From: Planctomycetota bacterium
Lineage (GTDB): Bacteria > Planctomycetota > UBA1135 > GCA-002686595
Length of the DNA stretch: 64,000 bases
Direction: 5' to 3'
Assembly (NCBI GenBank): GCA_016220085.1
Contig: JACRIN010000006.1
Coordinates: forward strand, 20,208-84,207
Under the pieces are notes generated by a model. It did not search any database, was not told the DNA's origin, and saw nothing but the letters and a program-made list of their open reading frames with translations. Position 1 is the first letter of the stretch. Every line of letters starts with the position of its first letter. Positions 31,974 to 53,708 of the stretch are shown here, piece after piece. Both the position numbers and the translations under genes were made by a program.

Positions 31974-32062
31974 GCCGAGCCTGAAGGAGGACTCCTCGAC
32001 GTGAGCGCGTGCAGCCGAGCCAAGACGAAGCTGACGCGGTCGACACGCGAGGTGATTTGGAG

Positions 32063-32089
32063 GAGCGTTCGCCTGGCGCGAACGCTCCG
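32063..32089 (+). promoter_or_regulatory. 11-bp perfect hairpin in the rpsO-pnp spacer
   Basis: GGAGCGTTCGC pairs with GCGAACGCTCC over a 5-base loop, about 50 bases before the pnp start. In E. coli the equivalent spacer holds RNase III-cleaved stem-loops used for PNPase autoregulation. The position suggests a similar processing site; no U-tract follows, so it is not a typical terminator. Confidence 0.6.
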
Positions 32090-32140
32090 CGTGGTAAGGG
32101 AATTCAACGCAACGATTCGAGACAAAAGGACATTGGTTTC

Positions 32141-34303
32141 ATGACCAGCACGTACGCGAGTGTGACGCGCGAGATCGCCGGACACACGATCACATTGGAG
32201 ACGGGCCAGATGGCTCGTCAGGCGCTCGGAAGCGTCATCGCCACGGTCGACGGCACGAAGTGCTTCGCCGCCGTTTGCGCAGGCCCGGGCCGCGAAGATC
32301 AAGACTTCTTCCCGCTCACCGTCGACTATCGCGAGAAGACCGAAGCCGCGGGCAAGATCCCAGGCGGCTTCTTCAAGCGCGAGGGTCGTCCGACGACGAA
32401 GGAGATCCTCACGATGCGCCTGATCGATCGCGCGATCCGGCCGCTCTTCGCCGACGGGTTCAAGCAAGAGGTGCAGTTGATGAGCCACTGCCTCTGCTAC
32501 GACGGAGTCACCAACTCCGACGTCACCGCGATGATCGCGGGCTTCGCCGCGGTGCGCATCAGCGGCATGCCGTTCCACGGTTCGCTCGGCGCGGTGCGCG
32601 TCGGCCAGATCGACGGCAAGTTCGTCGCGTTCCCGAGCGACGAGGAACGTCGCACGAACTCCGCGCTCGACCTCGTCGTCGCCGGCCACGCGGACGCGGT
32701 GTGCATGGTCGAAGCGAGCGCCAAGCAGCTCAAGGAACGCGAGATGGTCGACGCGCTCGAGTTCGCGCACGACGTCATTCGCCAGATCGCGGAGCTCATC
32801 GACGAGCTCAACGCGAAGGTCGGCAAGCCCGCCTACCCGTGGACGCCGCCGACGGTCGACGAGGCGCTCGCGAAGTCGGTGTCGGCCTACCGGCCGCGCG
32901 TCAAGGACGTGCTGTTCACGCCGGGCAAGCACGACCGCGCCGACGCGATCGACGCGATCCGCGACGAAGCGGTCGCCGCCCTGGTCGCCGGCATCACCGA
33001 CGAGAAGGAGCTCGCGAAGCGCACCAAGGCCGCGAAGGGCGCGTTCGACGAACTCGCCTCGAGCGTCGAGCGTGAAGCGATCGTCGACGGCAAGCGCGCC
33101 GACGGCCGCGCGTTCGATCAGATCCGCGAGATCACGATCGTCCCGAACTTCATCCCGCGTCAGCACGGCTCCGTGCTGTTCACGCGCGGTGAAACGCAGG
33201 CGTTGGTCAGCGTCACGCTCGGCACCGCCGACGACGAGCAGATCATCGACGGTCTCGACGACGAGTACCGCAAGAACTTCTACTTGCACTACAACTTCCC
33301 GCCGTACTCGGTCGGTGAGACGCGCCGCATCATGGGCCCGGGTCGCCGCGAGATCGGACACGGCATGCTCGCCGAACGCGCGCTCGGCAATGTCACGCCG
33401 CCGAAGGATCGCTTCCCGTACACGATCCGCATCGTCTCCGACATCATGGAGTCGAACGGCAGCTCGTCGATGGCGAGCGTGTGCGGCGGTTGCCTCGCGA
33501 TGATGCTCGCCGGCGTCCCGTTGATGCAGCCGGTCGCGGGCATCGCGATGGGCCTCGTCGAGGAAGGCGGCAAGCAGGCCGTGCTCTCCGACATCCTCGG
33601 CTCGGAAGACCACCACGGCGACATGGACTTCAAGGTCGCGGGCTCCGGTCTCGGCATCACCGCGCTGCAGATGGACATCAAGATCAAGGGCGTCACCCGC
33701 GAGCTCCTCGAGCGTGCGCTCGAGCAAGCCCGTCGCGGCCGCATCGAGATCCTGAAGAAGATGCTCGACGCCGTGCCGCGTCCGGCGAAGGAGATCTCTC
33801 CGTACGCGCCGCGCATGGAAGTGATCCGCATCCCGTCCGACAAGATCGGTTACCTGATCGGGCCCGGCGGTCGCAACATCAAGGCGATGCAGGAGCAGTA
33901 CAAGGTCAAGATCGCGATCCTCGACGACACCGGCACCGTGCAGGTCGCGGGCGTCGAGCGCGACAACGTGGCCGCCTGCATCCAAGCGATCCAAGCGATG
34001 TGCGAGACGCCGAAGATCGGCACTCGCTACAAGGGCACCGTCAAGTCGATCAAGGACTTCGGCGCGTTCATCGAGATCCTGCCGGGCGTCGAAGGCCTGT
34101 GCCACATCTCCGAGCTCGACGAAGGCTACGTCGACCGCGTCACCGACATCGTCCAGATCGGTGAAGAGGTCGAGGTCGAGATCATCAACGTCGACGACCG
34201 CGGCAAGATCAAGCTCTCGCGCAAGGCGGTGCTGGTCGGCAGCGGCGCGGGCCCGGAAGAGCCCGAGGGCGACGTGAATGAAGGTCAACCGAACGACGAG
34301 TGA
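32141..34303 (+). CDS. pnp: Polyribonucleotide nucleotidyltransferase (PNPase)
   Basis: This 3'-5' phosphorolytic exoribonuclease degrades mRNA. The 720-residue protein has two RNase PH domains ([50 protein letters not shown]), the motif [13 protein letters not shown], a KH domain ([21 protein letters not shown]) and an S1 domain ([33 protein letters not shown]). The ATG at 32141 follows AAAAGGA; the ORF-track start at 32009 lies upstream of the leader hairpin. Co-transcription with rpsO is expected. Confidence 0.98.
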
Positions 34304-34322
34304 TCGTCGACGGCGATCGAAG

Positions 34323-34366
34323 CCGCGGGCCGCTAGGGGACTGACCCCGCGCGGCCCGCGGTGTTT
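34323..34366 (+). terminator. Rho-independent-like terminator after pnp
   Basis: CCGCGGGCCGC pairs perfectly with GCGGCCCGCGG, with a further GGGG/CCCC pairing inside the loop, followed by TGTTT. It overlaps the ORF-track GTG start at 34361, which argues that the next gene begins further downstream. Confidence 0.8.
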
Positions 34367-34423: not shown

Positions 34424-37400
34424 GTGAGCCTCCTTGTCGTCGGTCTGCTCGCCGCCGCGCTCCAAGGCGCGGACCTCGCGCCGTCGACTTCGCCGCCGCG
34501 CCCGAGGGTCCACGCGGTGTGGATCGCGCCCGCGACGCTGGTCGTCGACGGCGATTCGACCGAGTGGCAGCCCGATACTCCCTCCGAGGTCGTCGTCGAC
34601 GACCTGCGGCAGTTCATCGCGCTCGGCCGACCGATCACCGATCTGTGGTCGGGACTCGACGATGCGTCGCTCGAGCTCTGGGTCGGTTGGAACCGCGACG
34701 ACCTGGTGCTCGGCGGCGTCGTGCTCGACTCCGTCGCGGACCACAACGCGCAGCGTTGGTACCAGGGCGACAGCCTCGAGCTCTTCCTCGATCTCGGCGA
34801 ACGCCGCGCGCAGTGGGGCCGCGACGACTACCAAGTGATGCTCGCGCCCAATTGGGAGGAGCGTCCGTGGGGCGTGTACCTGCACGAAGGCCAGGGCGGG
34901 CCCGCCGGTCCGTCCGACGGCGGCTTCGGCGGCGTCGAAGTCGCGTCGAAGCGCATCGACGGCGGCTATCGGTTCGAGGCCCGCCTGCCGTGGCGCAACT
35001 TCCACGGCTTCGTGCCGCGGGCGGGCGCCGAGCTCGGCTTCAACTTCGCGCTCTGCGATCGCGACAGCATCGGGCCGCTTGAGAGCTACGCGAATTGGAC
35101 CGGCGAGACCGACATCGCGTTCCACGCGGATCGGCGCGGCACGCTCTCGCTCGTCGCGCCTCCGCTCGAGGCCGCGGCGTCGACCGACAGCGCGGGCGAG
35201 TTCGAGGTGCTGCCGAACTTGCGTTGGATCGAGCTCGTCGCGCTCGCGGGGCTGTACGTGCTCGCGCTGTGGACGTGCGGGCTGTGGAGTCGGCCTCGCG
35301 CTCGGCGCGCGGCGGCCGCGTTCGCGCTGTTCGCGTTGCTCGGCGCGGTCGCCGCCGCGTTCGTCGCCGGCGCGATCGACCAGCGGGAGCGCGCCGGGCG
35401 CCGCGACGCGCTCGACGAGTACTGGGCACGCTTCCAGGCGTTGCTCGACTCCGGCGCGCTCGGGCATCCGGAGCCCGACGAGCTCGCCACCCGCGTCGAA
35501 GCGTTGCTCGCGGGCAAGTCGATCCCGGCGAAGCGCCCGTCGGCGTTCGTCAGCGTCGCGCCCGAGGGCTCGGAGCTCGGCGCGGTCGAGCGCACGCTGC
35601 GACGCGGCATTCCGTACCGACCGATCGTGTCGCCGGGCGCTGCCGATCCGCTGCGCGGTGTGAAGCTCGCACCGGGCGAGACGCGGACGCTGAAGCTCGA
35701 CCCGCCGATCGAGATCGACGCCGTCGAGCTGGTCGCTCGCGTATCGGATCCGCGCTACGTGCAGTTCGGCGTCGCGCAGACCAGCGTCCTGTCGCTCTCG
35801 TTCCTGCGCGGCGGCGAAGCGGTCGGCATCGCGCGCGAGGTGCGCCACCGTCAGGACCTGCACTTCGAGGAAGACGTCCACCGCGACCACCCGGGCCTCG
35901 AACCCGCGTTCTACCGCGCCGGCGGTCGCGTCGGGCGCGTGCACGCCGACGCGCTGTTGCTCGATCTCGGGCCGCCGAGGGCGGTCGACGAAATCGTCGT
36001 GCGGCACGTCGGCGGCGAGCGCGGGTACCTCGTCGAACTCGTCGCGTTCGCGGTGCGCGCGCCCGCGGTCGGCGCGGAGCTGCCGGAGGGCTTGCGCGCC
36101 AACGCCGCGGGCGAATGGGAATGGAGCTCTTGGACGCGCGTGATCGCCGCCGAGGTCGCCGCGCCCGCGCGCGCGCCGAAGACCAGCGCCGAGCTCGAGA
36201 TCGTGCGCGAGCTCTCGATCGGCGGCGAGCCGATCGGCACCGTCTACCTGCGCGACACGCGCGCCGTGCCGTCGCTCGCGCGTTGGCGGTGGCTGCCGAT
36301 CTTCGTCGCCGCCGGCCTCGCGCCGTTCGCGGTCGCTTTCTTCGCCGAGTGGCTCTCCGCTCGTCGTCGCATCCGCAACAAGCTCGCGGTCGGCTTCGCG
36401 ATCTCGTCCGCGGTGCCGCTGCTCGCGTTGACGTTGCTGCTCGAGAAGTCGCTGGAGCAGGAGCACGTCCAATACGAGGGCGAGCGCGTCTCCCTCGAAC
36501 TCGCCGACGCCGAGCGCGCGCTCGACGCCGAGCAGCGCGAACTCGCGCGCGAGGCCGAACGGCTCTTGCGCGTCGCCGCGGTGCGGTGGGAGCTCTCGCG
36601 TGAAGTGCCGGCGATCAGCGAGACGCTCGCGAGCGACGCGTGGTGGGGCCCGGGCGAAACCGGCGTCCTGCGGATGCTGATGCGCGTCGCGCCGGACGGA
36701 CGGTGGCTGCGCGTCGGCACCGGTCCGGGCTGGCAGAGCTTGCCGGCGTCGTTCCAACCGAGCTCCGGCGTGTGGCGGCCGTGGGGGCGCACGCTCGTCT
36801 GCGGTGTCGCGCAGACCGCGAGCGGCGCGGAGCAGCCGCTCTTGGTGCTAGTCGCGCGCGAACCGCGCTTCGAAGTCGCGACGCGCGCGGGACGGGAGGA
36901 GCGCGCGGCCTCGTCGCTCGCCGTGCTCGGCGTCGGTCGCGATCCCGCGCCGCGCTTGGAGGACCTGCGGCCCGCGCGCGCCGGCGAGACGCGCCGCGGC
37001 GTGTTCACGCCCGACGGCGAGCTCGCGCTCGTGCTGGTCGCGTCGCGCCGCGAGCGCGGCGTGCCGGTGTTCGGCACGTGGACGCTGACCGAGTTGCTCT
37101 TCGCCGCCGGTCTCTCCGCCGTCTTCACGGCGTTGCTCTTCGCGGGCATCCTCACCGGGCACTTGGTCGGTCCGATCGAGCGACTCGACCGCGCCGTGCG
37201 CGCGGGGCAGGGCTCCGACGCGAACGTCGAGGTCGAGGACGAGGTCGGGCACCTCGCCGGCGCGGTGCAATCGTTCGCACGCGAGGTCGCGCACCGCGTC
37301 CGTCAGCTCGAGTCGTTGCGCGACGTGCAGGAGGACCTTGCGAAGCACCTGGACACCGAGCTCGCGCGCGAAGCGGCGCTGACTTTCGTCGCCCGCGAGG

Positions 37401-39232
37401 TCGGCGCCGATTCGGTCTGGATGGCATGGCGCGGCGAGCCCGGCGAGGAGGCGCGCGTCTTTGCTCTCGGCGGCCGCTCGTTCCCGATCGCCGACGACGC
37501 GCAGTGGCTCCGGCGCGCGCTGCGTTGCGATCAGCTCCAGGAGTACCGCGACGAGCGCGGCTTGCCCGGGCTCTCGGCGTCCGAACGCACGTTGTTCGGT
37601 TCGGTCGAGCGCATGCTCGCGTTGCCTTTGGTCGCCGGCGGCGACGCGCGCGGAGCGTTGCTCGTCGGTACGTCGAACGAGCGCCAGCTCGACCTGACGT
37701 TCCTGCGCGCGGCGTCGGCGCAGGCGGCGATCGCGCTCGAGAACGCTCGCCTCTACGCGCGTGCCGTCACCGACGCGGTCACCGGCTTCCTGTTCGAGCC
37801 GGGGTTCCGCCAGCGCCTGGGCGAGGAGATCCAGCGCGCCGAAACCCAGCCCGAGGCGGGCGTGCGCGTCTTCCAAGTGCGTTTCCGCGACCTACCGCCG
37901 ATCGAGGCCGTCGCGGCGGAGCGCATCCGCGAAGCGTCGCGTCGGATGCGCAACGCGCTGCGCGGGATGGCGATCTATGGGCGCTCCGGTGCGACCGATC
38001 TCTTGGTCGCGCTTCCATGGAGCGGCCACAAGCCGAACATCGAGGCGCTGGAGGCGCGGCTGGTCGAGCAGCTGACCGCCGCACCCTGGCCCGACGGCAG
38101 CGCGGTCGGAAACCCGCTGGTCTCGACCGCCGCGTGGCCGGACGACGGCCCGAGCGCGCGCTTCGTGCTCCAGGTGCTCTCCGAGCGCCTCGCCGAAGTG
38201 CAGTCCGCGCAGCCGGTCGCCGCGCTCGAGTTCCTGGAGCGCAACCTGCCGACGGACTTCGTCGCCGGATCCCCGTTGATGGTCGAGCTGCTCGACACGG
38301 TGCGGCGCGTCGCCGAGCAGGACGTCACCGTCGTCGTCACCGGCGAGACCGGCACCGGCAAGGACCGGGTCGCCGAGCTGATCCATCGCTGGAGTGCGCG
38401 GACCGAGGGACCGATGGTCCACGTGCACTGCCCGTCGCTCTCCGGCGCCCTGATCGAGGACGAGCTCTTCGGCCACGAAGTGGGGGCCTTCACCGGCGCG
38501 GATTCGAGGCGGATGGGTCCGTTCGAGTACGCCGCCGGCGGCACCGTCGTGCTCGACGAGGTCGCAGGGCTTTCCCCCGAAGGCCAGGTCGCCCTGCTGC
38601 GCTTGGTCGAGACCCGCCAGGTGCTGCCGCTCGGCTCGACTCGGCCTGTGCAGCTCGACGTCCGCCTCGTGGCGACCAGCTCCAAGGACCTTTCCAGGGA
38701 AGTCCAAAGCGGGACGTTCCGCAGCGACCTCTACTTCCGCCTCAACGTCGCCCAGCTGACCCTGCCGCCGCTGCGCCTGCGCAAGCAGGCGATCCCCGAG
38801 TTGGTCGACGCCGCGCTGCGCCGGTTCAACGCCGCGGCGCCCAAGCCGGTGACCGGAGTCGCGCCGGGCGTGCTCGACCGGCTGTTCGACCACGACTGGC
38901 CGGGCAACCTCCGCGAGCTCTTCAACGTGCTGTCGGGCGGCTTCATCGTCGCCCAGGGCGGGGAGCTCCGCCTCGAGCATGTGACGCTGGAGCCCGCCGA
39001 GGAACCGGCGCCGACCGGCACCGCCGCGCTCAACGAGCGCCAGCGGGCGGTGCTCTCCGACCTCGGAGCCGGCGGCCAGATCACCTCGACCCAGTACGCC
39101 GACCGGCATGGCATCTCGAGCCGCACCGGCCTGCGCGATCTGCTCGACCTGGTGGAGCAGGGCTACCTCGCCAAGGAGGGGGAGCGTCGGGGCACCCGCT
39201 TTCGTCGCACCGCCAAGGCCGGACCAGCCTAG
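34424..39232 (+). CDS. Giant membrane-bound sigma-54 activator: CBM9-like sensor, HAMP, GAF, AAA+
   Basis: A 1602-residue regulator that joins an extracytoplasmic sensor to a transcription output in one chain. A signal/anchor segment is followed by a CBM9-like beta-sandwich at about 35-245 (VVDGDSTEWQPD, LWVGWNRDDLVLGGVVLD, DSLELFLDLGE). Several membrane helices occur near 270-320, 620-690 and 890-915. HAMP is at about 915-965, GAF about 965-1115, and the AAA+ sigma-54 interaction domain about 1285-1530 with GETGTGKDRVAELIH, GAFTGAD and DHDWPGNLRELFNVL. The C-terminus is a winged-helix-like domain (ITSTQYADRHGISSRTGLRDLL), not a Fis domain. The GTG at 34424 with GGAG upstream is preferred because the earlier start overlaps the terminator. 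The sensed ligand may be a carbohydrate. Confidence 0.85.
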   Translation: MSLLVVGLLAAALQGADLAPSTSPPRPRVHAVWIAPATLVVDGDSTEWQPDTPSEVVVDDLRQFIALGRPITDLWSGLDDASLELWVGWNRDDLVLGGVVLDSVADHNAQRWYQGDSLELFLDLGERRAQWGRDDYQVMLAPNWEERPWGVYLHEGQGGPAGPSDGGFGGVEVASKRIDGGYRFEARLPWRNFHGFVPRAGAELGFNFALCDRDSIGPLESYANWTGETDIAFHADRRGTLSLVAPPLEAAASTDSAGEFEVLPNLRWIELVALAGLYVLALWTCGLWSRPRARRAAAAFALFALLGAVAAAFVAGAIDQRERAGRRDALDEYWARFQALLDSGALGHPEPDELATRVEALLAGKSIPAKRPSAFVSVAPEGSELGAVERTLRRGIPYRPIVSPGAADPLRGVKLAPGETRTLKLDPPIEIDAVELVARVSDPRYVQFGVAQTSVLSLSFLRGGEAVGIAREVRHRQDLHFEEDVHRDHPGLEPAFYRAGGRVGRVHADALLLDLGPPRAVDEIVVRHVGGERGYLVELVAFAVRAPAVGAELPEGLRANAAGEWEWSSWTRVIAAEVAAPARAPKTSAELEIVRELSIGGEPIGTVYLRDTRAVPSLARWRWLPIFVAAGLAPFAVAFFAEWLSARRRIRNKLAVGFAISSAVPLLALTLLLEKSLEQEHVQYEGERVSLELADAERALDAEQRELAREAERLLRVAAVRWELSREVPAISETLASDAWWGPGETGVLRMLMRVAPDGRWLRVGTGPGWQSLPASFQPSSGVWRPWGRTLVCGVAQTASGAEQPLLVLVAREPRFEVATRAGREERAASSLAVLGVGRDPAPRLEDLRPARAGETRRGVFTPDGELALVLVASRRERGVPVFGTWTLTELLFAAGLSAVFTALLFAGILTGHLVGPIERLDRAVRAGQGSDANVEVEDEVGHLAGAVQSFAREVAHRVRQLESLRDVQEDLAKHLDTELAREAALTFVAREVGADSVWMAWRGEPGEEARVFALGGRSFPIADDAQWLRRALRCDQLQEYRDERGLPGLSASERTLFGSVERMLALPLVAGGDARGALLVGTSNERQLDLTFLRAASAQAAIALENARLYARAVTDAVTGFLFEPGFRQRLGEEIQRAETQPEAGVRVFQVRFRDLPPIEAVAAERIREASRRMRNALRGMAIYGRSGATDLLVALPWSGHKPNIEALEARLVEQLTAAPWPDGSAVGNPLVSTAAWPDDGPSARFVLQVLSERLAEVQSAQPVAALEFLERNLPTDFVAGSPLMVELLDTVRRVAEQDVTVVVTGETGTGKDRVAELIHRWSARTEGPMVHVHCPSLSGALIEDELFGHEVGAFTGADSRRMGPFEYAAGGTVVLDEVAGLSPEGQVALLRLVETRQVLPLGSTRPVQLDVRLVATSSKDLSREVQSGTFRSDLYFRLNVAQLTLPPLRLRKQAIPELVDAALRRFNAAAPKPVTGVAPGVLDRLFDHDWPGNLRELFNVLSGGFIVAQGGELRLEHVTLEPAEEPAPTGTAALNERQRAVLSDLGAGGQITSTQYADRHGISSRTGLRDLLDLVEQGYLAKEGERRGTRFRRTAKAGPA

Positions 39233-39476
39233 AAAACGGGCAGAAACTGCACGCCTCTGACGGATAATGTCGAATAGGTCGGCGTGGCGCTATCGCAGCT
39301 CGAGCCCGTCCGCAGCCGTTGCACGCCCCGATTGGCGGAGCTAAGTCGATTCTCGGCAGTGACTTGGGGGGATGGCGAACGAACGATTTCGTTATCCGTG
39401 GGCACTCGGACTACGCGTTGCGCTGCCCCCGGCGCGCCCAGCGACGTGTCGCTCGGCCAAGGAAGGACCCCCAGTC

Positions 39477-39995
39477 ATGAAGCTCACCCCCCCCGACCTT
39501 CGGCCCGCCCGTCAGCCCGCCTGCTCGCCCGCCCGCTGGTTCCAGGCCCTCGCGGCGCTGGTCTTGGTGGTAGGTGCGCTGGCGCATGCCGACCCGCTGG
39601 TGGACGCCGCAGCGCCCGTGTCGCCCGAGACGGCGGCGGTGCCGGCCGAGGCCTCGAGCCGGGCAGCGTCGCTCGTGATGGGGAAGGACTGGATCATCAA
39701 AGCCGCCGACAACATCTGCGGTCTGAAGGACGCCAGCCAGCTCAGCAATCCGGCGGTGGTCGACTACGACGCGCTGCTGGCGGCGACTCCGGAGATGAAG
39801 TCGATGCGCGATCAGAAGATCGACGCGAACACCCCGGAGGGGATCCGACTGACCAACGCGGCGGTCGACCGGGTGACGAAGGCCTGTGAGGAGATCCGGA
39901 CCCAGCTTGGCCACTGCAGCGTCTGGAAGGAAGTCCGCCACCGCGACGGTCGGACCCTCACCGACATCACCAGCAAGGTCAAGGCGCAGTTCTGA
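39477..39995 (+). CDS. Hypothetical secreted protein
   Basis: The 172-residue protein has a signal peptide (WFQALAALVLVVGALAHADP), a low-complexity Ala/Pro/Ser stretch and a small globular C-terminal domain of about 100 residues (GKDWIIKAADNICGLKD; TNAAVDRVTKACEEIRTQLGHC) with three cysteines. It is not recognised. AAGGAAGG precedes the ATG by about 10 bases, which fixes the start at 39477. It is followed by the secretin lipoprotein gene after an 83-base gap, so it may belong to the same secretion or envelope function. Confidence 0.6.
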   Translation: MKLTPPDLRPARQPACSPARWFQALAALVLVVGALAHADPLVDAAAPVSPETAAVPAEASSRAASLVMGKDWIIKAADNICGLKDASQLSNPAVVDYDALLAATPEMKSMRDQKIDANTPEGIRLTNAAVDRVTKACEEIRTQLGHCSVWKEVRHRDGRTLTDITSKVKAQF

Positions 39996-40078
39996 CCCGC
40001 CCCCGCCCGGCCCAGGTCCATCGCCTGACCGCGGCAGTCGAAATGACCTGCATCGGGCAGTCCCACCCCCTCGTTCGA

Positions 40079-41512
40079 ATGACGGTTTCGACCCCCCGAC
40101 GCGCGCTGCTCTCCGCCTGCCTGGCCACGATGTTGGGCGCGGGAGCCCTCAACGGCTGCGCTGGCCCGCGGGAAGTCTCCGAGCCCGGCGAGAAACCCGC
40201 GCTGACCGCCGAGGAGTTGCGCGCGTTGCTCCAACAGCACACGATCCAGCCGGTCAACGCCGTCGAGGGCGACGACCCGAATGCGCCGGTCGACCCGACG
40301 ATGCAGGACTACGCCGACCCGGCGAAAGCGGCGGCGCTGGCCTCGGATCCCCAAGGGTCTGGAGCGGAGCCCGACGCTCCGAAGCCGGCCCCCGAGCTGC
40401 CGGCGGAGAACCCGTACCTCGTCTTCGGCGAGCGCATCAAGGTCAATCCGGACGGGACGATCACCAAACCCTTCCCGCTGCGCAACGGCACCGGCGACAA
40501 GCTGCGCGACCTGATCGTCAACTACGGCAACTTCCCGCTGTGGAGCGAGACGCTCGGGCCGGGTCCGTCGACGCCGAACACGGTCAAGCTCGATCTGCTC
40601 GCGGGCTGGGACGTCGAGCTCTACCAGGACCTGCGCGCGCCCGGCGCCGCCGCGACGCCCGCGGCGCTCGCGGACTGGCTGGTGGTGACCGCGGGCGCCG
40701 ACCTGCTCTCGGAGGTCGAGGACTTCATCAACCTGTTCGCCGCCGGCGTGCCGCAGATCGAGATCGAGGCCAAGGTGGTCGAGATCGCGCTCTCCGACAT
40801 CCTCGACATCGGAATCAAGCCGGTCACCGGCAAGCCGATCTTCGACGCGCCGGGCTCGAACACGTTCATCCGCGGGCTGGACTACGCGCTGCCGAACTCC
40901 GCCGACGGCGTCGAAGCGCTGTTGACCCTCGGGTCGATCCAAGACGGGCTCGCGTTCAACGCGATCATCGAAGCGGTCCAAGGCCGACAGAACGTCTCGA
41001 TCATCAACCAGCCCAAGATCGCCGTGCGCGAGGGGAATCGAGCCGAAATCAGCTCGATCACCAAAGTGCCGTACCTGCAGGTCACCGGCATCAACGCGAC
41101 GGGCGGGTATGGCGCGCAGATCGGCTACCAGGAAGTCGGCGTCAAGCTCTACGTGATCCCGCGCGTCGTCGGGACGCAGACCGTAGCGCTGAACATCGAC
41201 ATCGAGGCTTCCCAGCAAACCGGATCGGCCGTCGCCCTGGTCGCCTCGACCGGTGAGGAAGTGCAGGTGCCGGTGCTGTCGACGCGCGCGGCGAAGACGA
41301 TCGTCTACCTGCAACCGGGCCAGGCGGTGATCCTCGGCGGCTTGATCACCGAGCGCACCGTCGACCGCGTCAACAAGGTCCCGTTGCTCGGCGACATCCC
41401 GATCCTCCAGTACCTGTTCCGTTCGACGACGAAGAGCAAGGAGCAGACGAACGTGCTCTTCTTCATCCGCCCGCGGATCCTGCAGGGCGTCGACCTCCAC
41501 CGTCAGTTCTGA
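40079..41512 (+). CDS. Secretin-domain lipoprotein (type II/IV secretion or pilus family)
   Basis: The 477-residue protein has a lipoprotein signal (SACLATMLGAGALNGCAG). A Pro/Glu-rich region is followed by one short N-type domain (INLFAAGVPQIEIEAKVVEIALSDILDIGIK) and a secretin core (VQGRQNVSIINQPKIAVREGNRAEI; VGVKLYVIPRVVG; LSTRAAKTIVYLQPGQAVILGGLI; VPLLGDIPILQYLFRS). Secretins form outer-membrane rings. The protein is short for GspD or PilQ and seems to keep a reduced set of periplasmic domains. The ATG at 40079 is chosen because it puts the signal at the N-terminus; 40043 is also in frame. It precedes the GspK-like gene. Confidence 0.85.
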   Translation: MTVSTPRRALLSACLATMLGAGALNGCAGPREVSEPGEKPALTAEELRALLQQHTIQPVNAVEGDDPNAPVDPTMQDYADPAKAAALASDPQGSGAEPDAPKPAPELPAENPYLVFGERIKVNPDGTITKPFPLRNGTGDKLRDLIVNYGNFPLWSETLGPGPSTPNTVKLDLLAGWDVELYQDLRAPGAAATPAALADWLVVTAGADLLSEVEDFINLFAAGVPQIEIEAKVVEIALSDILDIGIKPVTGKPIFDAPGSNTFIRGLDYALPNSADGVEALLTLGSIQDGLAFNAIIEAVQGRQNVSIINQPKIAVREGNRAEISSITKVPYLQVTGINATGGYGAQIGYQEVGVKLYVIPRVVGTQTVALNIDIEASQQTGSAVALVASTGEEVQVPVLSTRAAKTIVYLQPGQAVILGGLITERTVDRVNKVPLLGDIPILQYLFRSTTKSKEQTNVLFFIRPRILQGVDLHRQF

Positions 41513-41702
41513 GCGCCTCGGCCGGCGCGTGCGACTTCGGCCGGTCGGCGCGCTCGCTCCCGACGCGAGCCAAGACCGCGCGTCCGCCCGATTTCGGCCG
41601 GCGTCGGGGAGTGAGCGTGGCGGGGGTCCGAGGGCGGGTCTAGACTCGCGGCTCGCCGCGCGCATCGGGAAGATCGGCCAACGCCGCGCGTCGACTTCCT
41701 CC

Positions 41703-43286
41703 ATGCATCCGTCGTCGTTCCGTTCGAGGCGCCGCGGCTCGGCGCTGTTGCTCGCGCTGCTGGTGCTCCTGATCCTGCTCGCGATCATGGCGCAGCTCGT
41801 ATTCGGCACGAAGAGCGACGCGGACGTCGCGCGCAACGACATCGCGCTGACGACGATGGACCTGGCGATCGAGTCGTCCTTGCTCGAGGTGTTCGATCGG
41901 TTGAAGACCGACGGCGAGAGCGCGGGCGCCAGCTCCGGTTCCGGCGCGGCGCCGACCGATACCGGCGCGGCGGCGGCCCCCGGCGCGACCTCCAACGCGG
42001 CGGGAGGTGCAGGCGGCGAGCAACAGGGCTCGGTCGACTCCCGCGAGGATCCGTGGGGGCGTCCGCAGCGCACGTCGATCAACGAGATCGAGCTGCGGGT
42101 CGTCGTGCAGGACGAGGACAGCAAGCTCAACGTCCTCGGCATGCTCGCCGCGAACCAGGCCGAGGCCGAGAAGTGCTTCGACCGCGTGCAGCGCACGATC
42201 GACGCGTTCCGCGAAGGCACCGACTCGGACATCGATCCGTCGAGCGCGCGCACGATGGCCGAAGCGATGCGCGACTACATGAAAGACCGCTCGCGGCAGG
42301 TGCTGCCGAAGCCGCACTTGCTCTCGGACGACGAGAAGGTGCCCGATCAAGGGCTCGCGATCTCGCTCGACGAGTTCGCGGTGCTCGAACCGTTCGACGA
42401 GTCGATGTTCCGCGACTTCCGCGAGCCCGATGGACGGATCGTGCACTCGCTCGGCTCGTTCCTGACGACGTGGACGTCGTTGTCCGCCGGCGGCGCCGCG
42501 AGCGGCGGGGCGAGCGGCTCCGGTGGCGCGGCGCCCAGCGGTGGTGCGAACGATCCGGCCGCGGGCGACGCGAACACCGATGGCCAAGGCGGCGAGGGCG
42601 GCGACCAACCGCCGGGCGAGGGCGGCGACGTCGGCGACGCGGGCAGCGGCGCGAACTCCGGCCAATCGGGCGACCAAGGCAGCGGTGCGCAAGGTGGCGC
42701 GAACCAAGTCGGCGGCCAGACGAGCGCGGCGAGCAAGTACGGAGTCGCGGTCAACGTCAACACCGCTCCGCCGGCGCTCTTGAAGTCGCTGATCGACGAC
42801 CGCGACATCCCCAGTCGCTTCTGGGACAAGGTGATCGAGTACCGCAACCTCGAGGAGGAGTCCGAGGAGACCGACACCAGCACCACCGCGTCGGAGCCCG
42901 AGCCGGTGTACGACGAGTACGGCGAGGAAGTGATCCAGCGGCAGGTCTTCGATTCGCTCGACGAGCTCCGTGAGGTCGACGGTTATGAGAACCTCGACGG
43001 CGCGGCGCGGGCGCAGCTCGATCAGTTGTTGACCACCGAGAGCCAAGTCTTCACGATCATGATCACCGCGCGCAAGTCGACCGGGCTCGAGGATCCGACG
43101 CGCGGCGGCATGCGCGATCCCGAGGAGCGCGAGGATCTGATCGCGAACACGCTGACGCGCACGGTTCGCTGCGTCGTCTGGCGTCGCAAGTCGGGCGAAA
43201 ACCTCACGATCGTGCCGTTGGTGCGCTGGGAAGTCGTCGACTACATGCCGCTCGTCGTCGAGGACTTCCCCGACGATCGTCGCTGA
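41703..43286 (+). CDS. GspK-like minor pseudopilin with long Gly/Ser/Ala insert
   Basis: The 527-residue protein has a type II secretion pseudopilin-like N-terminus (RRRGSALLLALLVLLILLAIMAQLVFG) with basic residues before the hydrophobic helix. The GspK-type signatures are ELRVVVQDEDSKLNVLGML, where GspK has DEDGKININ, and VNVNTAPPALLKSLIDDRDI. Two long low-complexity inserts rich in Gly, Ala, Ser, Asp and Gln lie at about 65-110 and 260-340, more than in any standard GspK. The usual GspE, GspF and GspG genes are not nearby. A TAGACT box at 41641 may be its -10. The stop overlaps the next start (TGATG). Confidence 0.78.
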   Translation: MHPSSFRSRRRGSALLLALLVLLILLAIMAQLVFGTKSDADVARNDIALTTMDLAIESSLLEVFDRLKTDGESAGASSGSGAAPTDTGAAAAPGATSNAAGGAGGEQQGSVDSREDPWGRPQRTSINEIELRVVVQDEDSKLNVLGMLAANQAEAEKCFDRVQRTIDAFREGTDSDIDPSSARTMAEAMRDYMKDRSRQVLPKPHLLSDDEKVPDQGLAISLDEFAVLEPFDESMFRDFREPDGRIVHSLGSFLTTWTSLSAGGAASGGASGSGGAAPSGGANDPAAGDANTDGQGGEGGDQPPGEGGDVGDAGSGANSGQSGDQGSGAQGGANQVGGQTSAASKYGVAVNVNTAPPALLKSLIDDRDIPSRFWDKVIEYRNLEEESEETDTSTTASEPEPVYDEYGEEVIQRQVFDSLDELREVDGYENLDGAARAQLDQLLTTESQVFTIMITARKSTGLEDPTRGGMRDPEEREDLIANTLTRTVRCVVWRRKSGENLTIVPLVRWEVVDYMPLVVEDFPDDRR

Positions 43287-51627: not shown

Positions 51628-52005
51628 ATGGCCAGGCTTCCTCCCAAACTTCAAGCCCATTTCCTAGCGCCGCGCCACGCACGGACGCCGGTCGGTGCCG
51701 ACGGGCTCGGCCGCAGCACCAACCCGGCGTGCGGCGACGCGCTTGAGGTCGGTGTCTGGCTCGCGGAGGGCCGAGTGCGCGAGCTCGCGTGGGCCGGAAG
51801 GGGCTGCGCAGCGTCGCTGGCGTGCGCTTCCCTCGCCGCGGAGCGACTGAGCGGGCTCGCGCTCGCCGACGCGCGCGCGTTCGACCTCGCCGGCGCCGTC
51901 CAGGAGTTGGGCGGATTGGGCCCGACGCAGCAGCACGCCGTGCAGCTTGTGGCACGCGCGATTGCCAACGCCCTTTCGAAAGCGGCCGATTCGTGCCAAA
52001 GTTAG
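51628..52005 (+). CDS. NifU/IscU-like Fe-S scaffold-family protein
   Basis: The 125-residue protein is related to the Fe-S cluster assembly scaffold domain: STNPACGDALEVGVWLAEGRVRELAWAGRGCAASLACASLAAERLSG. Two ligand cysteines are in place (NPACGD and GRGC). The third ligand, normally a cysteine in a helix such as R-x-x-C-A-x-L, seems to be a histidine here (QQHAVQLVARAIANAL). It is short, with a compact C-terminus. No cysteine desulfurase is nearby. The next gene is a sigma-54 activator, so a regulatory or specialised Fe-S role is possible. Confidence 0.78.
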   Translation: MARLPPKLQAHFLAPRHARTPVGADGLGRSTNPACGDALEVGVWLAEGRVRELAWAGRGCAASLACASLAAERLSGLALADARAFDLAGAVQELGGLGPTQQHAVQLVARAIANALSKAADSCQS

Positions 52006-52049
52006 CCAGTCGTGTCCGGGATGGGCACGGCTTGCACAGAAGGCACGCC

Positions 52050-53708
<1,659 letters not shown>

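What the first reader, a model, noticed from the sequence alone, without database searches (positions are those of the whole stretch)
34424..39232. One-protein pathway from an extracytoplasmic CBM9-like sensor to sigma-54 transcription
A single 1602-residue chain joins a carbohydrate-binding-like domain, several membrane helices, HAMP, GAF, AAA+ with intact GAFTGA, and a winged-helix-like end in place of Fis. Membrane-anchored sigma-54 activators are rare. A tethered AAA+ hexamer would have to reach its DNA from the membrane.
Basis: partly seen in the sequence, partly recalled or inferred. Interest (0 to 1): 0.62.

Follow-up and report, generated by a model that had tools for sequence, protein, structure and literature searches.

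The report
Membrane-bound sigma-54 activator of secretin operon
A single giant planctomycete protein appears to sense something outside the cell, span the membrane and switch on, through sigma-54 RNA polymerase, the neighbouring genes for an outer-membrane secretion pore; its probable DNA target and promoter can be read in the sequence right beside its own gene.

Summary
The ORF is real and built as described. It reads signal peptide, CBM9-like domain, five predicted membrane helices enclosing two more outside domains, HAMP, GAF, AAA+ with intact Walker motifs and GAFTGA, and a winged helix. The protein is not an oddity: I aligned 18 relatives, and at least about 42 of 343 sampled Planctomycetota genomes carry it. 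I found no description of it in the papers searched. What it controls is readable in the DNA. Downstream of its stop codon lies a tandem 10-bp repeat (TGNCGNATAA x2), the only near-match in the 5.5-Mb genome, and about 130 bp further a -24/-12 (GG-N10-G[C/T]) element, just before an operon of an OmpH-like protein, a secretin and GspK. The -24/-12 element is present in 26/30 loci with the sensor and 2/17 without it. It is absent in the two relatives with broken ATPase motifs. In four genomes where the genes are unlinked or divergent, the secretin operon still carries the element and a 10-bp repeat. Best reading: a dedicated membrane one-component sigma-54 activator of a secretin operon. Ligand, tethered action and DNA binding are inferred, not shown.

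The parts
34424..39232 (+). Membrane-spanning sigma-54 activator, 1602 aa, GTG start
34424..34480 (+). Signal-peptide-like hydrophobic N terminus (aa 1-19)
34601..35173 (+). CBM9-like extracytoplasmic domain (about aa 60-250)
   Evidence: Pfam PF06452; profile match to xylanase CBM9-2 1i82, E=1.4e-15
35228..35377 (+). Membrane helices 1 and 2 (aa 269-287, 300-318)
   Evidence: hydropathy; same places in orthologues
35378..36289 (+). Second extracytoplasmic domain (aa 319-622), no known family
36290..36442 (+). Membrane helices 3 and 4 (aa 623-641, 655-673)
36443..37096 (+). Third extracytoplasmic domain (aa 674-891), no known family
37097..37318 (+). Membrane helix 5 and HAMP (aa 892-965)
37316..37744 (+). 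GAF domain (aa 965-1107)
37751..38170 (+). Degenerate GGDEF domain (about aa 1110-1249), catalytic motif lost
38258..39010 (+). AAA+ sigma-54-activation domain with GAFTGA (about aa 1279-1529)
39029..39220 (+). C-terminal winged helix-turn-helix (aa 1536-1599)
39258..39277 (+). Tandem 10-bp repeat TGACGGATAA|TGTCGAATAG, proposed enhancer site
   Evidence: only match within one mismatch in the genome
39406..39422 (+). -24/-12 element TCGGACTACGCGTTGCG (GG 39408-39409, GC 39420-39421)
   Evidence: a weak copy by itself (3.6 bits), conserved in position in relatives
39477..39995 (+). Small secreted protein, 172 aa; some orthologues match OmpH/Skp weakly
40043..41512 (+). Secretin (GspD/PilQ superfamily), probable lipoprotein
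   Evidence: PF00263 E=1e-39; TIGR02517 best NCBIfam match
41529..43286 (+). GspK-like minor pseudopilin
   Evidence: NF037980 E=6e-9, below cut-off; T2SSK weak
32009..34303 (+). pnp (polynucleotide phosphorylase), constant upstream neighbour in the order
   Evidence: identified from its sequence; synteny

Best explanation
A membrane-embedded one-component sigma-54 activator dedicated to one target. Outside domains (CBM9-like plus two unclassified ones) detect a signal. The change passes through five membrane helices, HAMP, GAF and a catalytically dead GGDEF domain to the AAA+ domain. The winged helix binds the tandem 10-bp repeat, placing the AAA+ assembly about 120-170 bp upstream of a -24/-12 promoter, where ATP-driven contact through GAFTGA opens sigma-54 RNA polymerase and transcribes the OmpH-like/secretin/GspK operon. 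Shown by sequence: domain order, intact motifs, repeat and promoter-like element, their conservation and co-occurrence with the gene. Inferred: DNA binding by this protein, topology, signal identity, direction of control, action while tethered.
For: Intact AAA+ motifs in all aligned members except family f8. Two sigma-54 genes in each of ten genomes tested. GG-N8-TTG[C/T] within 420 nt after the sensor stop in 26/30 loci against 7.2 expected from shuffles and 3 on the opposite strand; 2/17 in genomes without the sensor (Fisher p=5e-7). With the stricter TTGC form 20/31 against 1/17 (p=7e-5). Positions not used for selection still match the sigma-54 consensus: A 23/29, C 20/29, G 20/29 in GGCACG. 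Tandem repeat: significant in all 9 f1 loci used for training and in several held-out families, 0/17 without the sensor; one match within one mismatch in 5.5 Mb. In four genomes where the sensor is unlinked from or divergent to the secretin operon (f21 x3, f73), the operon has the -24/-12 element with a 10-bp repeat 120-132 bp upstream. f8, with altered Walker motifs and no CBM9, has no element.
Against: The window's own -24 half is poor (GGACT; 3.6 bits). TTG[C/T] was adopted after seeing the sites. Relatives are not independent: the tree needs only 3-4 gains or losses. Two intact-ATPase loci (L045, L053) lack the element; in f63 and part of f35 none was found at the secretin. The repeat is not significant in several families, and the sequence-free self-similarity test reached p<=0.05 in only 10 of 29 loci. 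No experiment links this protein to this DNA.
Confidence: 0.74

Rival explanations
1. Same circuit, but the signal is the state of the secretin/pseudopilus itself (feedback, as PilS senses pilin or Psp senses mislocalised secretin), not a carbohydrate.
For: The target encodes an envelope pore and a periplasmic OmpH-like protein. Three large outside domains, two of unknown family. The second CBM9 clamp tryptophan is not kept. f8 keeps two outside domains without CBM9.
Against: CBM9 is kept in 17 of 19 members with the first clamp aromatic in 15 of 17, which suggests ligand binding there.
Confidence: 0.4
2. The AAA+/winged-helix part is cut from the membrane by proteolysis and acts as a soluble activator.
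For: It would solve the problem of reaching DNA; in f21 and f73 the target is not beside the gene.
Against: HAMP follows the last helix directly and HAMP-GAF-GGDEF is conserved as a relay, which suits conformational signalling; no cleavage site was seen, though none was searched for systematically.
Confidence: 0.2
3. The -24/-12 element is real but served by another of the roughly 19 sigma-54 activators of the genome; the sensor does something else.
For: Many activators in the genome, and one lies at window 51789-53708.
Against: Element and repeat are missing where the sensor is missing although those genomes keep many other activators; the repeat sits directly after the sensor gene in f1 and nowhere else in the genome.
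Confidence: 0.12
4. No regulation: the adjacency is a passive by-product of a conserved pnp-secretin locus, and motif matches are chance in GC-rich DNA.
For: pnp-small-secretin-gspK is conserved without the sensor as well.
Against: Counts far exceed shuffles, opposite strand and sensor-less loci; unlinked cases keep the elements.
Confidence: 0.06

Closest known systems
Bacterial enhancer-binding proteins (NtrC/NifA/ZraR class, Pfam PF00158)
   Same: AAA+ domain with Walker A/B, GAFTGA, arginine-finger region; GAF in front as in NifA; site about 120-170 bp upstream of a -24/-12 element
   Different: Five membrane helices and three outside domains in the same chain; degenerate GGDEF before the AAA+; winged helix instead of Fis HTH; tandem 10-bp direct repeat rather than a palindromic site
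PilS-PilR and other two-component sigma-54 systems (from general knowledge)
   Same: Membrane sensing linked to sigma-54 control of a secretin-type envelope machine
   Different: Sensor and activator are one polypeptide; no kinase, no receiver domain
Membrane-bound one-component activators CadC/ToxR (from general knowledge)
   Same: Outside sensor, membrane helix and DNA-binding domain in one chain
   Different: They use sigma-70 polymerase and have no ATPase; here an AAA+ assembly must form
CBM9-2 of Thermotoga xylanase 10A (PDB 1i82)
   Same: Profile E=1.4e-15 over the fold; Trp71 position kept in 15 of 17 members (clamp from PMC8280721)
   Different: Trp175 position mostly not aromatic; here a receptor domain, not an enzyme module
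Type II secretion GspD and GspK
   Same: Secretin domain and GspK-like protein in one operon
   Different: No GspE, F or G alongside; an OmpH-like protein is first in the operon

Membership tests
Bacterial sigma-54 enhancer-binding proteins | AAA+ domain with Walker A, Walker B and GAFTGA | tested here: met
   GETGTGKD, VVLDE, GAFTGA; 17 of 19 members intact, 2 altered
Bacterial sigma-54 enhancer-binding proteins | Sigma-54 gene in the genome | tested here: met
   two per genome in ten genomes
Bacterial sigma-54 enhancer-binding proteins | -24/-12 promoter with an upstream binding site | tested here: met
   (by sequence; binding not tested)
Bacterial sigma-54 enhancer-binding proteins | Fis-type C-terminal HTH (usual, not universal) | tested here: not met
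   winged helix (HTH_27, HTH_DeoR), no HTH_8
Bacterial sigma-54 enhancer-binding proteins | ATP hydrolysis and open-complex formation | not testable with these tools
   needs biochemistry
CBM9 carbohydrate-binding modules | CBM9 fold by profile | tested here: met
CBM9 carbohydrate-binding modules | Two-aromatic sugar clamp | tested here: inconclusive
   first position kept, second mostly not
Active diguanylate cyclases | GG(D/E)EF motif | tested here: not met
   SGATD and other non-catalytic motifs in all members
Type II secretion system | Secretin and minor pseudopilin present | tested here: met
   (GspK below the curated cut-off)
Type II secretion system | GspE, GspF and GspG in the same locus | tested here: not met
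   not among the ORFs scanned after the secretin; GspF homologues lie on other contigs; GspE and GspG not searched genome-wide

The most novel reading that the evidence does not exclude
A sigma-54 AAA+ activator works as a full-length integral membrane receptor: its hexamer assembles at the inner face of the membrane on a single genomic operator, in many genomes right behind its own gene so that transcription and membrane insertion may bring the site to it, and a dead GGDEF domain relays the outside signal to the ATPase.
Probability: 0.4. Interest if true: 0.78.

Novelty: new variant of a known kind. Interest (0 to 1): 0.64.

Why it matters
Sigma-54 activators are treated as soluble proteins fed by separate membrane kinases. 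A phylum-wide family that fuses outside sensor and ATPase, with a readable single target, makes it testable whether a sigma-54 activator can work from the membrane. It also gives a promoter-level lead to how planctomycetes, whose envelope and uptake of large molecules are debated, control an outer-membrane pore.

Tried and rejected
First scan with a strict sigma-54 matrix found nothing convincing and I nearly dropped the target question; comparison across orthologues revealed the element because this phylum's copies often have CGG and TTGT. Exact TGGCAC-N5-TTGCW in the genus gave one hit upstream of a small-heat-shock-like gene, not this operon. An early idea that a conserved GGATAAT block might be a sigma-70 -10 box was dropped once it resolved into a tandem repeat. 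Conservation of pnp-secretin adjacency alone was rejected as evidence, since it holds without the sensor. Two AlphaFold runs without a deep alignment gave pLDDT 40 and 33 and were not used. PDB profile searches with outside domains 2 and 3 gave nothing reliable. An attempt to sample another phylum was not possible with the handles available, so presence outside Planctomycetota is untested apart from one genome-contig scan that found only ordinary activator domains elsewhere.

Full report
OBSERVATION. The ORF runs from GTG 34424 to the TAG at 39230-39232 and encodes 1602 residues. Pfam finds CBM9 (E=9e-14), the sigma-54 interaction domain (E=3e-55), its lid, and a weak GAF. Hydropathy gives a signal-like N terminus and five membrane segments at 269, 300, 623, 655 and 892, at equivalent places in the relatives. 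With the N-terminal domain outside, five crossings put HAMP and everything after it in the cytoplasm and leave three outside domains: CBM9, 319-622 and 674-891. Its catalytic motif is lost in all members, so it can be at most a relay or ligand-binding domain. The AAA+ motifs are intact. The end is a winged helix (HTH_27 weak in this protein; HTH_DeoR in 8 of 19 members).

DISTRIBUTION. The genome is a Planctomycetota MAG; its near relatives in GTDB carry that title. Sixty relatives and 343 genomes of the phylum were searched. Eighteen near-complete homologues were aligned and 19 of 20 further loci from other families show CBM9, AAA+ and winged helix in one frame (one is cut by a contig end). 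I count about 42 of 343 sampled genomes with a match spanning well beyond the AAA+ domain (read from the table; a lower bound because few candidates per genome were scored). CBM9 is present in 17 of the 19 aligned members. The two without it (family f8, loci L056 and L057) also have altered Walker A/B and GAFSGA/GAYSGA.

NEIGHBOURS. In this order the locus reads pnp - sensor - small secreted protein - secretin - GspK-like. In related genomes without the sensor (17 with the pnp junction in hand, mostly of the same family) pnp is followed directly by small - secretin - gspK in nearly all. So the neighbourhood by itself is not evidence for function. The small protein resembles OmpH/Skp weakly in four of seven orthologues (E 0.0009 to 0.016, below cut-off).

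PROMOTER. A strict matrix scan of the window found nothing beside the gene, but the orthologues did. GG-N8-TTGC lies within 400 nt after the sensor stop in 20 of 31 loci (shuffles 4.1, opposite strand 2) and in 1 of 17 sensor-less loci. Allowing TTG[C/T], which I adopted after seeing the sequences, gives 26 of 30 against 7.2 expected, 3 on the opposite strand, and 2 of 17 without the sensor (Fisher 5e-7). The strongest non-circular point is that bases not used to select the sites agree with the known GGCACG consensus: A in 23, C in 20 and G in 20 of 29. The window's own copy, TCGGACTACGCGTTGCG at 39406-39422, is one of the weaker ones and is accepted because it aligns with its relatives. Both f8 loci, with broken ATPase motifs, have none.

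ENHANCER-LIKE REPEAT. Directly after the stop codon lies TGACGGATAA TGTCGAATAG (39258-39277). A matrix trained on nine f1 loci finds tandem copies in several held-out families and in 0 of 17 sensor-less loci. In nine f1 genomes the pattern with up to one mismatch occurs once in each of G000, G001, G002, G028, G030 and G338, each time just after the sensor gene; G007 has that site and two strays, G015 has two strays only, and G003 has no match at this stringency (its own copy has more mismatches). The repeat starts about 120-170 bp upstream of the -24 element in most loci where it is seen, the spacing usual for enhancer sites of this class. A test that uses only self-similarity is weaker: 10 of 29 loci at p<=0.05 against 0 of 17.

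UNLINKED CASES. In family f21 the sensor gene lies elsewhere in the genome and in f73 the secretin operon is on the opposite strand. All four operons examined have the element (TGGGCATGGTCCTTGTT, TAGGCACAGCTATTGTG, TAGGCACGCTAGTTGTG, GCGGTACAGTGTTTGCT) and a 10-bp repeat 120-132 bp upstream. In f63 and part of f35 no such element was found at the best secretin hit, so the circuit may have changed there or the wrong secretin was taken.

INDEPENDENCE. A pnp tree needs three to four changes of the sensor label, so the correlation rests on a few independent events plus the decay in f8 and the unlinked cases.

MECHANISM. Best reading: a dedicated membrane receptor-activator of the secretin operon. 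What it senses is open. CBM9 keeps the first clamp aromatic in 15 of 17 members but mostly not the second, so binding of a sugar or of another ligand, or feedback from the secretin itself, are all possible. Whether it acts tethered or after cleavage is open; HAMP straight after the last helix favours conformational signalling. That the operator sits behind the gene in linked genomes suggests, but does not show, that coupled transcription and membrane insertion bring DNA to the membrane; the unlinked cases show that this closeness is not obligatory.

KNOWN WORK. Searches of the held papers for membrane-bound sigma-54 activators found no description of this architecture. A 2025 survey of sigma-54 regulons includes Planctomycetota but no such protein came up in the passages read (PMC12316311). 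Many subscription papers, among them an early survey of activators in Pirellula, are not in the library, so absence of a description is not proven.

Noticed in passing
L056 5029-9684 and L057 4003-8694 (family f8): Relatives without CBM9 and with altered Walker A/B and GAFTGA, still beside pnp and secretin but without a -24/-12 element: a possible change from sigma-54 ATPase to another kind of regulator.
   Followed up: partly
L064-L067 (G000 C94:16357 and relatives): The only perfect TGGCAC-N5-TTGCW site in each of four genus genomes lies upstream of what reads like an Hsp20-type gene, a likely sigma-54 heat-shock promoter.
   Followed up: partly
whole genome: Two sigma-54 genes in each of ten genomes of the order tested.
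   Followed up: no
39477-39995: Small secreted protein family, weakly OmpH/Skp-like, first in the secretin operon wherever it was read.
   Followed up: partly
34319-34363: Long GC-rich inverted repeat between pnp and the sensor gene, possibly a terminator that separates the two.
   Followed up: no
51789-53708: A second, conventional GAF-AAA+-Fis sigma-54 activator 12 kb downstream.
   Followed up: no
G000, six loci: Six secretin genes in one genome, two of them on C63 in frames of 900 and 995 aa.
   Followed up: no
L058 6344-11779: Another very long open frame (1812 codons) that holds a sigma-54 AAA+ domain, not an orthologue of this family; the true gene start is unclear.
   Followed up: no
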